Positions 20,105-25,461 of a stretch of DNA of 38,286 bases are shown here, piece after piece. A program made the translations under genes and the position numbers. This stretch comes from Leptolyngbya sp. FACHB-321 (lineage in GTDB: Bacteria; Cyanobacteriota; Cyanobacteriia; Leptolyngbyales; Leptolyngbyaceae). Below the pieces are notes generated by a model. The model was not told the origin of the DNA. It did no database searches and saw only the letters and a list, made by a program, of their open reading frames with translations. Where the stretch lies: positions 1-38,286 of the forward strand of contig NZ_JACJPI010000054.1 in the NCBI RefSeq assembly GCF_014695975.1. The letters run 5' to 3'. The stretch's first letter is position 1. Each line of letters opens with the position of its first letter.

Positions 20105-20354
20105 CACAAAGACCTGTTGAAAAAGAGTGCTTAGACTAGCTACACCTCCTCCTCCTCAATACCGCACATTTGCCTCATAACTAAATGGTATTCAGGTTCA
20201 TGACAGGCGCGATCAATGTACTGACAGAGCTAAATGCGATCGCCCCGGTTGTAGAAAACATCAGTCTGTGGCGCGGCTTCGCTAACGTTACGGCGTAATG
20301 ATCAGCGTACAAAAGAGAGAAAGAGTACGCCCTAACACTTCGACAGCCTGTCTT

Positions 20355-20412
20355 TTGACGCTGTGACCAGTCAGGTAAACAATAGAGCTTGCTGATGCTT
20401 CGTTGTGAGGGG
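20355..20412 (+). promoter_or_regulatory. Candidate petJ promoter and ribosome site
   Basis: TTGACG (20355-20360), a 17-base spacer and AACAAT (20378-20383) form a reasonable promoter; GAGGGG (20407-20412) is a well-placed ribosome site six bases before ATG 20419. A related segment lies 1.04 kb upstream (19301-19372). Confidence 0.4.
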
Positions 20413-20418
20413 ACTGGT

Positions 20419-20769
20419 ATGAAAAAACTAATGTCGAGCTTGCTGGTAGCGATCGCGCTCTGTCTCACGTTCTTTACTACTCCCGCACTGGCAGATGCCG
20501 CGACAGCTCTTACTGCAAGGGGTGCCAAGCTCTTTAGTGCAAATTGTGCAGCTTGTCATCAAGGTGGCAACAATGTTATTTCTGCTAACAAAAACCTGAA
20601 AGCAGCCGCGCTGAAGCAGTATGGTATGGATTCGACTGAAGCGATTATCGCCCAGGTGACAAACGGTAAAAACGCCATGCCTGCGTTCAAAGGTCGGCTA
20701 AAAGAAGAGGATATCCAAGCCGTAGCTGCTTATGTGTTAGACCAGTCAGCAAAGGACTGGAAAAAGTGA
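20419..20769 (+). CDS. petJ: Cytochrome c6 (soluble)
   Basis: Cytochrome c6 carries electrons in the thylakoid lumen from cytochrome b6f to photosystem I or terminal oxidase, often replacing plastocyanin when copper is scarce. ATG 20419 is preferred over the ATG ten codons upstream because of its ribosome site and normal signal peptide ([20 protein letters not shown], cleaved near ALA25). The mature protein has the heme-binding CAACH (43-47), the axial Met87 in NAMPAF, the typical [16 protein letters not shown] start and the C-terminal [11 protein letters not shown]. The precursor length of 116 residues is typical. The TauE/SafE-FRD gene follows on the same strand. Confidence 0.95.
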
Positions 20770-20868
20770 TGCATTACTGGGTGTCCCGAAGCCAATGATG
20801 GGTTTGGACATTTAGAAGGTACAACGCTCAAACCTCTTTTGACCAATGATTTAGGTTGCCTACGGATA

Positions 20869-22089
20869 ATGACTGATTTGTTGCTGGTCATGCTGCTAGG
20901 ACTGCTGGGCAGTTTTGGGCATTGTGTGGGGATGTGTGGACCACTCACAGCCGCCTTTGCGCTGTCTCAGCAGTCCTCGTCGTGGCAACAGCGCTTGTTT
21001 TTTCATGGATTGTTAAACCTGGGGCGCATTGTGAGCTATGCACTGGTGGGTGCTGGCATTGGCGCACTTGGATCAGTGCTGGTCGCTGGTGGACAACTGG
21101 CAGGGATTGACAGTGGACTGCGACAGGGGTTGTCGATCGTCACCGGGTTGGTACTCATCTGGATGGGGTTAACGCAGATTAATCCCAAACTATTGCCAGG
21201 ATTGCCCTTGCTTCATCCCATTCTGCAAGGCGGCTTTCACGAGCGTCTGAGTGGTGGCATGATGCAGCTTTCCAGCTATGCTCACTGGTGGACTCCAGCA
21301 CTCCTCGGCATGACATGGGGCTTGATTCCCTGCGGGTTTTTGTATACGGCGCAGATCAAAGCGGCTGAAACGGGTAGCCTCTGGCATGGCACCGCAACAA
21401 TGTTGGCCTTTGGTCTGGGTACTATGCCCTCAATGTTGGGCGTTGGGCTTTCGACAGCGCTGGTCAGTCGCGATCGCCGCAGTCAACTTTTTCGCATGGG
21501 TGGGTGGGTCACGCTAGCGATCGGCATTCTCACCCTCCTCCGTACAGACGCAATGGTGGACTACACTGGGCATGCTGCTATCCTTTGCCTGATGCTGGCA
21601 CTGCTTGCCCGTCCTGTGAGTCCTTTCTGGCAGTTTCCCTTGCGCTATCGGCGTGTGTTTGGTGTCGGTGCCTATGTCCTCTCGCTGGCACACATCGGCC
21701 ATATGCTGGCTCACACCTTTGAATGGGATCTGCAAAGCCTGCCGTTTTTACCGATCGAGCAGCAGGTAGGCATCTGGGCAGGCATTGTTGCGATCGGTCT
21801 CATGACTCCCGTTGCCCTCACCAGTTTTGACTGGATGGTCAAGGTACTAGGTCGGCATTGGCGACACATTCATCTCTTAAGCGTTCCAGCCTTGATCCTT
21901 TGCGTCGCGCACACAGTTTTGGTTGGCTCTCATTACCTCGGCACAACCGAATGGACAACGGCAAACAAAGTGCTGTCTGGCTGTTTAGTAATCGTTACAG
22001 CGGGCATCTTGCTCGTACGGTTACCCTGGTTCTGGTCTTTACCAGGCTTGAAACCGTTTTATACCTCACCCATTCGCACTAAAGATTAA
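20869..22089 (+). CDS. TauE/SafE (UreH/DsbD_2)-like protein fused to a ferric-reductase-like membrane domain
   Basis: This 406-residue polytopic membrane protein starts at ATG 20869 (a TTG ten codons upstream is less likely). The N-terminal half (about 1-225) begins LLLVMLLGLLGSFGHCVGMCG with Cys19 and Cys23 in HCVGMCGP. That motif marks the DsbD_2/TauE-SafE family, whose members occur with cytochrome oxidase and copper genes. The C-terminal half (about 230-400) has five membrane segments with His pairs (SLAHIGHMLAHTFEW; WRHIHLLSVPALILCVAHTVL), like ferric-reductase/MsrQ-type di-heme domains. It lies 99 bases after petJ. A role in c-type cytochrome, heme or metal handling in the lumen is inferred. 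Confidence 0.72.
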   Translation: MTDLLLVMLLGLLGSFGHCVGMCGPLTAAFALSQQSSSWQQRLFFHGLLNLGRIVSYALVGAGIGALGSVLVAGGQLAGIDSGLRQGLSIVTGLVLIWMGLTQINPKLLPGLPLLHPILQGGFHERLSGGMMQLSSYAHWWTPALLGMTWGLIPCGFLYTAQIKAAETGSLWHGTATMLAFGLGTMPSMLGVGLSTALVSRDRRSQLFRMGGWVTLAIGILTLLRTDAMVDYTGHAAILCLMLALLARPVSPFWQFPLRYRRVFGVGAYVLSLAHIGHMLAHTFEWDLQSLPFLPIEQQVGIWAGIVAIGLMTPVALTSFDWMVKVLGRHWRHIHLLSVPALILCVAHTVLVGSHYLGTTEWTTANKVLSGCLVIVTAGILLVRLPWFWSLPGLKPFYTSPIRTKD

Positions 22090-22653: not shown

Positions 22654-23244
22654 ATGGGGACTTTGATTTTTCTGGTTGTACTGATTCTGATCATTGGTTT
22701 CATCTTTATGGATGGCTACAACGGTCTTGTGACGCTCCGCAACCGTTACAAGAATGCCTATAGCCAGATTGATGTGCAGTTACAACGGCGTTACGACTTG
22801 ATTCCAAATTTGGTGGAAACTGCGAAAGGCTACATGAAGCATGAGCGGGAAACACTCGAAGCCGTCGTTGCTGCCAGAAATGCTGCGTTGTCAGCCAATA
22901 GCCGTGCTGCCAGAAATCCTGGTGATCCAAGCACCATGCAGCAATTGGGTGATGCAGAAAGTGCGCTGACAGGCGCGTTAGGACGCTTGATGGTGCTGTC
23001 AGAAGCCTATCCTGATTTGAAGGCTGATCAGACGATGACCCTCGTGATGGAAGAACTATCCTCCACTGAAAATAAAGTCGCCTTTGCCCGTCAGGCTTTT
23101 AACGATGCCGTTACCTTGTACAACACAAAGCGCGAAGTCTTCCCCAGCAATCTGGTAGCAAATGGGTTCAACTTTGCACAAGCAGAACTGTTAGAAGAAG
23201 CTGCACCAGAGGTTAAAGTCGCACCGCGCGTATCGTTCAGCTAA
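22654..23244 (+). CDS. LemA-family protein
   Basis: This 196-residue protein has one N-terminal membrane segment (about 2-20, GTLIFLVVLILIIGFIFMDG) and the LemA helical bundle. Family blocks: YNGLVTLRNRYKNAYSQIDVQLQRRYDLIPNLVET (22-57) with its QRRxDLIPNLV core, VVAARNAAL, LMVLSEAYPDLKAD, and FNDAVTLYNTKREVFPSNLVA near the end. LemA proteins are membrane-anchored and are often encoded beside M48 peptidases, as here (129 bases before the M48 gene). They may act as its adaptor. ATG 22654 is the start. Confidence 0.92.
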   Translation: MGTLIFLVVLILIIGFIFMDGYNGLVTLRNRYKNAYSQIDVQLQRRYDLIPNLVETAKGYMKHERETLEAVVAARNAALSANSRAARNPGDPSTMQQLGDAESALTGALGRLMVLSEAYPDLKADQTMTLVMEELSSTENKVAFARQAFNDAVTLYNTKREVFPSNLVANGFNFAQAELLEEAAPEVKVAPRVSFS

Positions 23245-23373
23245 GGGCAGGAGTCAGCAGTGAGCTTTTTACTTCACGCTGATAGCGATTTCCAAAGCAA
23301 TCTTCGACCGTAGGAAGCATTCATCTCCAAGGATGACGCGCCTCCACTTCCTAAATTCTCCTGGCAGAGCATC

Positions 23374-25461
23374 ATGAATTTTTTTGAGCATCAAGATCAG
23401 GCGCGAAACAATACGCGAAAGCTGATTCTGCTTTTCGCGCTGTCTCTGTTGTTTATCACTGTCACGGTTTACTTAGCGGCAGTTGTTACGCTGTCGGGTT
23501 CGTCTAAAGGGTCAAAGTCGCGATCGTCCCGCTACTCATCAATCAACTGTACCCAACCGCGTTCTGCCGCTGGTGAACCTCGCGTTAGCACCAATTTTAA
23601 TGATCCGGCTGAACGCTTTCAATCGCGTAACCCCAATAGTGTTGCCGTTAGTCCCTCTCTACGGGTGCCATGTCCGCCTGTCACTCAGAAAGCAGCCTTT
23701 AGCTGGTGGAATCCCTCGCTGTTCTTCACCATTGGCACTGGCACTGTAGTCATTGTGGGTTTGGGTAGCCTGTACAAAATTCAAACGTTGAAAGCAGGCG
23801 GCAGTGTTATTGCCCAGGAAATGGGCGGACGGTTGCTGCTGTCAGAAATGGCGCACCCGGAAGAACGGCAGTTGTTGAATGTCGTTGAGGAAATGGCGAT
23901 CGCCGCTGGCATCTCAATCCCTGCCGTGTATGTTCTCGACGGGGAGCAAGGCATCAACACATTTGCTGTCGGTTTTACATCCAATGATGCTGTTATTGGT
24001 GTCACACGCGGAACACTTGATGTCCTTTCCCGTGACGAATTACAAGGAATGATTGGGCATGAATTCAGCCATATTCTGAATGGCGATATGCGGCTGAATA
24101 TTCGTCTCATCGGCATACTGCATGGGCTGCTGGTCCTTTACATTACAGGACGAGTCTTGATCAATTGCCGACCAGGTGGCAAGGAAGGGAATGCCTTACT
24201 CGCATTTGGCATTGCTCTTGTAGTGATTGGTAGCTTTGGCTTGTTGTGCGGTCGGTTGATTAAAAGCGAAATCTCGCGCCAACGTGAATTTTTGGCAGAT
24301 GCATCCGCAGTGCAGTTTACCCGCAACCCAGCCGGACTTGCAGGCGCGATGAACAAAATCGCTAACCACCCTTACGGCTCGTTAATGCAACACCCCGCTG
24401 CAGAGGGTAACAGCCACCTTTTTTTCAGCAGTGCATTGCACTTCGGGGTTCTCGGATCGTTGTTTTCGACGCATCCAAAGGCAGAACAACGGATGCGTCG
24501 TATCGAAGCTTTCAAAGGCAAGTATGCGACTCAAACGCCCACGTTTGGAGGCAGCAGTCGTTCACCGTTGGTTGGTCAAGCTGGCAGCACCACTGTAGCT
24601 AGACATACGAATATTCAGGCAAATGCGGCTCAGGTCGTGGATCAGGTTGGCACCGTTACATCCGAACACTACGCCTATGCGAAAGCGCTTCTGGGACAGT
24701 TACCTGAATCCCTTCTGTCAGGTATTCGAGAGCCGCAGGGCGCGATCGCGATCGTTTACGGGCTGCTGCTCGACACTCAAAATGCCGCTGTGCGAACGAA
24801 ACAACTAGAGTGGCTGAAGCAGGTTGAACCAGCCGATGTCATTGAGAAAACTCTGGCGTTGAGTGCTGACATTGATGTACTTGATCCACGATCGCGGCTC
24901 CCCCTGGTTGATCTCACCATACCCGTTTTGCGTCAGAGTGATACCGACCAACACCAGCGGCTTTTCAAATGCATTCAGGGTTTGGCAAATGCGGATGGAC
25001 GTTGGTCATTGTCAGAATTTGTCCTGTATGCCGTGTTGCGCCATCGCTTGCAGCCGTCCAGCGTGACAAGCCCTCAATCTACCGAGTTCACTACGATCGG
25101 GCAAATCTGGTCAGACTGTTTGATTCTGCTGTCAGGCTTGGCGCAGGTTGGACAAACGGGCACCGATGCGATTACCTATGCCTTTCGCTCTGGCGTTCAT
25201 CGGTTGCCGGGAGCCGGACAGGAAATCTTGCCCGATGCACCACCAGCCTGCAACATGAAAACGCTGAAGTATAGTATCGATCGCCTAAACCTGGCAACGC
25301 CGAAGCTCAAACAAGCGATCGTTGATGCCTGTGCTCATACAGTGTTGCTGGATAACAAGGTGACGGTACAGGAAGCAGAATTACTGCGGGCGATCGTCAT
25401 TTTGCTCGACTGCCCCATGCCGCCCTTTTTGAACATTGGTAGCAAGCGGATTAAGGCATAA
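23374..25461 (+). CDS. M48 (HtpX-like) membrane metalloprotease with C-terminal extension
   Basis: This 695-residue membrane protease has a first membrane segment (about 18-39), an unusual Ser/Arg/Pro-rich extracytoplasmic insert (about 45-112), and a second membrane segment (about 113-133). The M48 catalytic domain follows: zinc motif HEFSH at 229-233 and third ligand Glu305 in QREFLADASA, with further hydrophobic segments between. The C-terminal part (about 440-690) is helical; FKCIQGLANADGRWSLSEFV and LLDNKVTVQEAELLRAIVIL look like TerB-type helices (ADG..S..E). It pairs with the LemA gene just upstream. The substrate is unknown; HtpX proteases remove damaged membrane proteins. Confidence 0.88.
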   Translation: MNFFEHQDQARNNTRKLILLFALSLLFITVTVYLAAVVTLSGSSKGSKSRSSRYSSINCTQPRSAAGEPRVSTNFNDPAERFQSRNPNSVAVSPSLRVPCPPVTQKAAFSWWNPSLFFTIGTGTVVIVGLGSLYKIQTLKAGGSVIAQEMGGRLLLSEMAHPEERQLLNVVEEMAIAAGISIPAVYVLDGEQGINTFAVGFTSNDAVIGVTRGTLDVLSRDELQGMIGHEFSHILNGDMRLNIRLIGILHGLLVLYITGRVLINCRPGGKEGNALLAFGIALVVIGSFGLLCGRLIKSEISRQREFLADASAVQFTRNPAGLAGAMNKIANHPYGSLMQHPAAEGNSHLFFSSALHFGVLGSLFSTHPKAEQRMRRIEAFKGKYATQTPTFGGSSRSPLVGQAGSTTVARHTNIQANAAQVVDQVGTVTSEHYAYAKALLGQLPESLLSGIREPQGAIAIVYGLLLDTQNAAVRTKQLEWLKQVEPADVIEKTLALSADIDVLDPRSRLPLVDLTIPVLRQSDTDQHQRLFKCIQGLANADGRWSLSEFVLYAVLRHRLQPSSVTSPQSTEFTTIGQIWSDCLILLSGLAQVGQTGTDAITYAFRSGVHRLPGAGQEILPDAPPACNMKTLKYSIDRLNLATPKLKQAIVDACAHTVLLDNKVTVQEAELLRAIVILLDCPMPPFLNIGSKRIKA

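What the first reader, a model, noticed from the sequence alone, without database searches (positions are those of the whole stretch)
20389..22089. Cytochrome c6 gene paired with a TauE/SafE-ferric-reductase fusion
petJ is followed 99 bases later, on the same strand, by a 406-residue protein that joins a DsbD_2/TauE-SafE half (HCVGMCGP) to a His-rich ferric-reductase-like half. Seen: the order, the two halves, Cys19/Cys23 and the His pairs. Known: DsbD_2-like proteins occur near cytochrome oxidase and copper genes, and MsrQ/FRD domains bind heme in the membrane. Inferred: a membrane electron or metal route serving c6 maturation, or copper/iron sensing at the thylakoid.
Basis: partly seen in the sequence, partly recalled or inferred. 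Interest (0 to 1): 0.6.

Follow-up and report, generated by a model that had tools for sequence, protein, structure and literature searches.

The report
Copper-switch reductase beside cytochrome c6
A cyanobacterial membrane protein that joins a thiol-type electron carrier to a heme-binding-type reductase sits beside the cytochrome c6 gene, probably shares its copper-responsive switch, and usually occurs with a small exported protein that looks copper-binding, so it is probably an uncharacterised part of how cyanobacteria obtain or handle copper.

Summary
In detail: petJ (20419-20769), a 99-base gap, then a 406-residue fusion (20869-22089) of a DsbD_2 half and a YedZ/STEAP-type half. Such fusions were reported in 2004 (title seen, abstract recalled). 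Not found in print is its setting. (1) It goes with an unnamed exported protein, c1, with invariant His1, His14 and CxC: of 291 genomes both are found in 191, one alone in 7, neither in 93. c1's predicted fold is nearest to copper proteins. (2) petJ and/or PetR/PetP-like genes lie within about 6 kb in 17 of 75 loci. (3) A palindrome, GTTTGACAGNCTGTCNTTT, precedes petJ, fusion and c1. A matrix made only from petJ promoters scores strongly before the fusion in 20 of 57 loci without petJ or petR nearby. In the own genome the extended site is mismatch-free only before petJ-fusion and before the distant c1. Best reading: a copper-handling redox module of the cytochrome c6/plastocyanin switch, probably reductive copper scavenging. 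Cytochrome c6 maturation is unlikely. PetR binding and copper chemistry are inferred; half the loci lack a strong box.

The parts
20338..20356 (+). putative operator CTTCGACAGCCTGTCTTTT (palindromic core GACAGNCTGTC at 20342-20352), 62 bases before the petJ ATG
   Evidence: score 25.6; next best in the window 12.1; one of two mismatch-free extended sites in the genome, the other before c1
20419..20769 (+). petJ, cytochrome c6 (116 aa, N-terminal hydrophobic segment, CAACH heme motif)
   Evidence: NF045930 above cut-off
20770..20868 (+). 99-base gap between petJ and the fusion; 3-4 bases in six close relatives
   Evidence: one match in the own genome
20869..22089 (+). DsbD_2 / YedZ-STEAP-type fusion protein, 406 aa
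20887..21531 (+). DsbD_2 half (residues 7-221): invariant H18, C19, C23 and C155
   Evidence: same residues in three bacterial and archaeal stand-alone homologues
21565..21903 (+). ferric-reductase-like half as matched by Pfam (residues 233-345): R261, H275, H335; H348 lies just beyond
   Evidence: fold match STEAP1, STEAP2, cytochrome b561, SpNOX

Best explanation
The fusion is a membrane redox component of copper handling in cyanobacteria, made (inferred) together with cytochrome c6 when copper is scarce. Shown by computation: it shares a palindromic operator with petJ and c1 in many genomes, it co-occurs with c1, and its two halves keep the cysteines of CcdA/DsbD-type carriers and the His/Arg pattern of YedZ/STEAP reductases. 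Inferred: the operator is read by the copper-switch regulator PetR; the heme half passes electrons across the membrane; these reduce Cu(II) to Cu(I), or keep the CxC of c1 reduced so that it can hold Cu(I); c1 and the DsbD_2 half hand the copper on for uptake or for loading copper proteins such as plastocyanin and cytochrome oxidase.
For: Co-occurrence with c1: 191 both, 5 fusion only, 2 c1 only, 93 neither, of 291. c1 lies within 400 bases in 61 of 75 loci (70 genera), 58 of them downstream on the same strand, median gap 54 bases. c1: hydrophobic leader (read by eye as a signal peptide), then invariant His1, His14 and CxC in 41 sequences; model pLDDT 88; best solved folds are CrdA (Z 12.5, 104 residues, 3.3 A), FetP, HftA and FtrA/P19 (Foldseek E 7e-5 for CrdA). 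PetR/PetP-like genes near the fusion in 12 of 75 loci, petJ in 13, either in 17. Operator: petJ-trained matrix, score 13 or more within 350 bases upstream in 21 of 74 loci (one of the 75 dropped, too little upstream) against 9 of 2028 control windows; 18 or more in 20 of 57 loci with no petJ/petR nearby; 38 such sites in 190 kb upstream against 10 in 1.68 Mb elsewhere, at least 4 of those 10 lying before petJ or c1. Own genome: extended site mismatch-free only before petJ-fusion and before the unlinked c1. Stand-alone DsbD_2 homologues: 4 of 4 annotated records opened lie beside genes that I know as copper-enzyme or copper-delivery genes (a fifth has no annotation). In genome G061 one separate homologue of the heme half lies beside cytochrome oxidase subunit III and another beside c1.
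Against: No metal, heme or DNA binding was tested. Half of the loci (37 of 74) have no box scoring 18 or more within 2.6 kb. Only 3 of 20 unlinked c1 genes have a box with at most one mismatch. In the own genome neither the petE-petJ2 cluster nor the petR region has a good box, although PetR is reported to act on petE in Synechocystis. PetR (E <= 1e-25) co-occurs only partly with the fusion (162 both, 34 fusion only, 31 PetR only, 64 neither), and boxes are not clearly rarer without PetR (39 of 66 against 2 of 8 at score 13; Fisher 0.036 to 0.11 over five thresholds). The c1 fold match is by model only; no relative above cut-off in Pfam and none credible in the PDB by sequence, and FetP/P19 proteins serve iron uptake (recalled). 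In seven of the eight genomes with only a separate heme half, c1 is not within about 1.5 kb of it. Genomes are related, so p values overstate independence.
Confidence: 0.62

Rival explanations
1. Iron arm of the switch: the heme half is a ferric reductase and c1 an FetP/P19-like iron/copper protein, raising iron supply for heme when cytochrome c6 replaces plastocyanin.
For: c1's fold neighbours include FetP, FtrA/P19 and HftA, known (recalled) from iron uptake; the Pfam domain is named Ferric_reduct; the shared box with petJ fits equally well.
Against: Neighbours of stand-alone DsbD_2 homologues are copper-related, not iron uptake genes, in the four annotated records opened. The nearest fold is the copper protein CrdA. 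I recognised no iron permease among the 40 clusters printed near the fusion, but identified few of them by search.
Confidence: 0.17
2. Copper export or detoxification: the module reduces or sequesters excess copper in periplasm or lumen.
For: CrdA is called a copper resistance determinant; Cu/Zn superoxide dismutase-like genes share the Pseudanabaena run of genes.
Against: In linked loci the box lies before petJ, and petJ is the gene used without copper (passages), so induction by excess copper is not expected.
Confidence: 0.1
3. One reading: a membrane electron or thiol route for cytochrome c6 maturation.
For: Recurrent petJ adjacency and the DsbD/CcdA-like cysteines.
Against: 89 of 95 genomes lacking a fusion match have a petJ-family match at E <= 0.001, and 4 fusion genomes have none. 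c1, not petJ, is the constant partner.
Confidence: 0.06
4. MsrQ-like repair system: the heme half feeds a periplasmic methionine or cysteine repair partner.
For: Weak match to MsrQ (31 bits).
Against: Far below the MsrQ cut-off of 130 bits; c1's predicted fold resembles copper-binding Ig-like proteins. A search for msrP was not made.
Confidence: 0.05

Closest known systems
YedZ fusions of cyanobacteria (von Rozycki et al. 2004; title seen in the reference list of PMC3591440, abstract recalled)
   Same: YedZ/STEAP-type heme domain fused to a transport or biogenesis protein
   Different: c1 partner, petJ/PetRP linkage and shared operator are not part of what I recall of it; the paper was not held
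DsbD_2 (PF13386) stand-alone 'TauE/SafE family' proteins beside copper-related genes
   Same: H-C-x-x-M-C-G and P-C motifs, copper-related neighbours in the four annotated records opened
   Different: no heme half, other partners
STEAP metalloreductases and YedZ/MsrQ
   Same: predicted fold (Z 13.6 to STEAP1) and three-His-plus-Arg signature
   Different: no NAD(P)H/flavin domain found by Pfam in the 406 residues; fused to DsbD_2; paired with c1
PetRP copper switch of Synechocystis (petE, petJ, slr0601-slr0602)
   Same: BlaI-like regulator and membrane protease beside petJ in 8 of the 75 loci
   Different: the passages read name no such fusion in the regulon; I had no sequences of slr0601, slr0602, PetR or PetP of Synechocystis, so whether slr0601/slr0602 are relatives of c1, c9 or others is untested
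CrdA and FetP/P19/FtrA periplasmic copper proteins
   Same: predicted fold of c1
   Different: no detectable sequence similarity; own invariant His1, His14, CxC; partner is a DsbD_2-YedZ fusion

Membership tests
Cytochrome c6 PetJ | NCBIfam NF045930 cut-off | tested here: met
   147.7 against 135 bits
DsbD_2 (PF13386) | Pfam gathering score and conserved cysteines | tested here: met
   157 against 24.9 bits; C19, C23, C155 invariant
CcdA/DsbD thiol carriers | redox-active cysteine pair carrying electrons across the membrane | not testable with these tools
   residues conserved; activity unknown
YedZ/STEAP branch of ferric reductase domains | Pfam score, three His and Arg in place of the first canonical heme His | tested here: met
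   37.5 against 28 bits; R261 (14 before H275), H275, H335, H348 invariant in 63 rows; signature read in passages of PMC3591440
YedZ/STEAP branch of ferric reductase domains | heme b binding | not testable with these tools
   ligand pattern only
MsrQ | NCBIfam equivalog cut-off | tested here: not met
   31 against 130 bits
Full ferric reductase / NADPH oxidase | fused NAD(P)H/FAD domain | tested here: not met
   no such Pfam domain in the protein
CrdA or FetP/P19 family (for c1) | fold | tested here: inconclusive
   Z 12.5 to CrdA, 9.8-11.6 to the FetP/P19 group, model only
CrdA or FetP/P19 family (for c1) | sequence similarity to the family | tested here: not met
   no Pfam match to c1 above cut-off, no credible PDB sequence relative
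PetR regulon | operator shared with petJ | tested here: met
   found in about half of the loci only
PetR regulon | PetR binds it and controls transcription | not testable with these tools
   inferred from petR-petJ divergent promoters

The most novel reading that the evidence does not exclude
An undescribed cyanobacterial copper-acquisition module: a DsbD_2-YedZ/STEAP fusion acting as a cupric reductase and copper hand-over protein, paired with an unnamed exported copper protein (His1, His14, CxC), both under PetR, forming a missing uptake arm of the plastocyanin/cytochrome c6 switch in about two thirds of the genomes sampled.
Probability: 0.45. Interest if true: 0.82.

Novelty: new variant of a known kind. 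Interest (0 to 1): 0.7.

Why it matters
The copper switch between plastocyanin and cytochrome c6 is a classic of cyanobacterial physiology, yet in Synechocystis the PetRP regulon is reported to hold only four proteins, two of unknown function (commentary). If the shared operator is PetR's, many other cyanobacteria add a membrane redox protein and an exported, probably copper-binding partner. That would give a concrete candidate for how the cell reduces, captures or delivers copper when it runs short, and a ready genetic test.

Tried and rejected
Literature terms on DsbD_2/TauE and on YedZ with copper in cyanobacteria showed no paper on this fusion in the listings; passages of PMC3591440, PMC8238504 and PMC7676999 were read. 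The key papers of 2004 (YedZ) and 2021 (PetRP) are not held. The BlaI/CopY-type pattern TACANNTGTA (recalled) was sought in 32 upstream regions and not found. The fold search of the whole fusion gives, for the DsbD_2 half, only Z 6-8 rows to unrelated-looking transporters, which shows nothing either way. Sequence search of the PDB with both alignments gave only chance-level rows. The other five exact core sites in the own genome score under 13 with the extended matrix and were set aside as probable chance. I could not check the spatial clustering of c1's His1, His14 and CxC because no model coordinates were in the Python box. A class search for the regulator used a strict limit (E <= 1e-25), so PetR absences are uncertain.

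Full report
Observation. The window holds petJ at 20419-20769 and, 99 bases later on the same strand, a 406-residue fusion at 20869-22089. petJ passes the NCBIfam PetJ model. The fusion has a DsbD_2 half (residues 7-221) and a Ferric_reduct half (233-345), both above Pfam cut-offs. In 103 aligned sequences, the window's included, H18, C19, C23, C155, H275 and H335 never vary; H348 is present in 102 and H282 in 100, the rest being gaps. R261, 14 residues before H275, is invariant in 63 rows; with H275, H335 and H348 this is the pattern that PMC3591440 gives for the YedZ/STEAP branch (three His, Arg in place of the first heme His; passages). The predicted structure (mean pLDDT 75.5) matches STEAP1 (Z 13.6, 155 residues, 3.8 A), STEAP2, cytochrome b561 and SpNOX in the C-terminal half. 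The tool warns that Z near 13 can be common for helical bundles, but the sequence pattern agrees.

Spread. A match to the fusion was found in 196 of 291 genomes of the class. I re-examined 14 genomes, 12 of them from the 196: 8 match only with the heme half, as separate proteins, one only with the DsbD_2 half, one has a remnant, two (not among the 196) have nothing, and two have a full-length fusion. So full-length fusions are fewer than 196; other weak matches were not re-examined.

The constant partner is c1, not petJ. In 80 named loci, the best of 227 found, the commonest neighbour is an exported-looking protein, in 60 of 80; petJ is within the fetched flanks (at most 8 kb) in 22 of 80 (several contigs are short, so both are lower bounds). 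A second set of 75 genomes, chosen by hand from the matches listed and covering 70 genera and 20 families, has c1 within 400 bases in 61, 58 of them downstream on the same strand, median gap 54 bases. Across 291 genomes both fusion match and c1 are present in 191, fusion only in 5, c1 only in 2, neither in 93. The 191 include the eight genomes with only a separate heme half. Shared ancestry inflates any p value.

What c1 looks like. It has a hydrophobic leader ending in A|H (read by eye; no predictor was run), so that the mature protein would begin with His1; His14 and a CxC are also invariant in 41 sequences. Three c1 proteins have no Pfam match above cut-off. Its model is good (pLDDT 88). 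The closest solved folds are H. pylori CrdA (Z 12.5), then FetP, HftA, Tp34 and FtrA/P19, most with copper in the entry titles; a DUF4426 protein of unknown role also ranks high. Foldseek also ranks CrdA first. A PDB sequence search finds nothing credible. Copper binding is therefore a structural inference.

Copper-switch neighbourhood. Of the 75 loci, 13 have petJ and 12 have a BlaI-like regulator with an M56/M48-like membrane protease; 8 have both and 17 at least one (families checked by Pfam for two pairs). A frequent order is protease and regulator on one side, and on the other petJ, a protein that looks TPR-like by eye, sometimes an exported His-rich protein (c9), the fusion, and c1. I take this pair to be PetR/PetP, the regulator and proposed copper-sensing protease of the plastocyanin/cytochrome c6 switch (passages of PMC7896320, PMC13421787, PMC12292863), without having had the Synechocystis sequences to compare. 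GeCoViz reports petP, comB and petJ as conserved neighbours of petR and, in the passages seen, no fusion. In the own genome petR-petP, petE-petJ2 and c1 lie on other contigs. In another family, genome G011, the order petJ-fusion-c1 is nearly gapless.

Shared operator. Among 32 regions upstream of petR or petJ (several from close relatives, so not independent) the palindrome GACA-N3-TGTC appears in 14; three shuffled sets gave no pattern in 5 or more. The extended form is GTTTGACAGNCTGTCNTTT. In 57 fusion loci with neither petJ nor petR within about 6 kb, 12 have the core with at most one mismatch within 350 bases upstream, against 15 of 1962 control windows. Of 20 petJ genes away from any fusion, 7 have it with at most one mismatch (shuffles 1.25%); of 20 c1 genes away from the fusion, 3 do (shuffles 0.5%). 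A matrix trained only on 11 of those petJ sites scores 13 or more in 21 of 74 fusion upstream regions against 9 of 2028 control windows, and 18 or more in 20 of the 57 without petJ or petR nearby. Sites scoring 18 or more number 38 in 190 kb upstream of the fusion and 10 in 1.68 Mb elsewhere; by position at least 4 of those 10 lie before petJ or c1. In the window's own 6.7-Mb genome the core occurs 7 times (reversed control 3). The extended form without mismatch occurs only at 20338-20356, before petJ-fusion, and at C40:106243-106261, before the unlinked c1 gene; the next best has two mismatches, and at three mismatches the pattern is no commoner than its reversed control. That pattern was written with these two sites in view, so the independent evidence is the petJ-trained matrix. 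In five of six close relatives petJ and c1 have a box each.

Limits. Half of the loci show no strong box within 2.6 kb (37 of 74). In the own genome, petE-petJ2 and petR have none. Boxes are not clearly tied to PetR presence (39 of 66 with PetR, 2 of 8 without, at score 13; Fisher 0.036 to 0.11 over five thresholds), and PetR and fusion co-occur only in part (162 both, 34, 31, 64). That PetR reads the box is thus the likeliest but unproven reading.

Relatives outside cyanobacteria. The DsbD_2 half matches stand-alone proteins in 93 plasmid records. I opened five: four are annotated, and all four lie beside genes that I know as copper-related: cbb3 oxidase and a metal P-type ATPase in Sinorhizobium, a primary-amine oxidase in Natrinema, NosL, Sco and FixH in Paenibacillus, ba3 oxidase, halocyanin and a P-type ATPase in Haloarcula. 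The fifth has no annotation. H18, C19, M22, C23, P154 and C155 are invariant in the window protein and three of these. In genome G061 a separate heme-half protein lies beside cytochrome oxidase subunit III, and another beside c1; in the other seven genomes with only a separate heme half, c1 was not seen within about 1.5 kb of it.

Interpretation. Shown: gene pairings, shared box, conserved residues. Inferred: PetR control, hence expression at low copper; heme and thiol electron transfer; reduction of copper or of c1's cysteines; hand-over of copper. The iron rival stays open because FetP/P19 proteins act in iron uptake (recalled) and c6 needs heme iron. Cytochrome c6 maturation is unlikely, since 89 of 95 genomes without a fusion match have a petJ-family match at E <= 0.001 and 4 with it have none (206 of 291 pass the PetJ cut-off).

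Novelty. The fusion type was reported in 2004 (title seen; abstract recalled; not held). I found no report of its pairing with c1, of the shared operator, or of its place in the copper switch in the listings of searches of an open-access library that lacks most subscription journals.

Noticed in passing
20770-20868: In six close relatives the petJ-fusion gap is 3-4 bases; the window has a 99-base stretch found once in its genome, with an 8-base direct repeat (CCAATGAT) 51 bases apart.
   Followed up: partly
L116 6361-8591 (own genome, contig C72): A second petJ lies beside petE and two c-type cytochrome genes that look like psbV; no good copy of the operator was found there.
   Followed up: partly
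L117 about 6315 (own genome, contig C40): In the own genome the c1 gene lies away from the fusion but has its own copy of the operator 52 bases upstream.
   Followed up: yes
L139 5439-5975 and 11 other loci: c9: an exported-looking His-rich protein, without Pfam match in the two tested, just upstream of the fusion in 12 of 75 loci.
   Followed up: partly
L140, L144, L161, L190, L191: A protein that looks TPR-like by eye, with an N-terminal hydrophobic segment, recurs between petJ or petR and c9 or the fusion.
   Followed up: no
L061, L083, L104 and other Pseudanabaena loci: A Cu/Zn superoxide dismutase-like gene lies between petJ and c1 in the same run of genes.
   Followed up: partly
L277 237-1705: A separate ferric-reductase-like protein overlaps or abuts the cytochrome oxidase subunit III gene.
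   Followed up: partly
L276 1303-1791: Genome G149 matches the fusion only by residues 1-35 and 138-175 in one short frame, while c1 is still present in the genome.
   Followed up: no
22654-25461: A LemA-family gene followed by an M48 (HtpX-like) protease gene, unrelated to the finding as far as seen.
   Followed up: no
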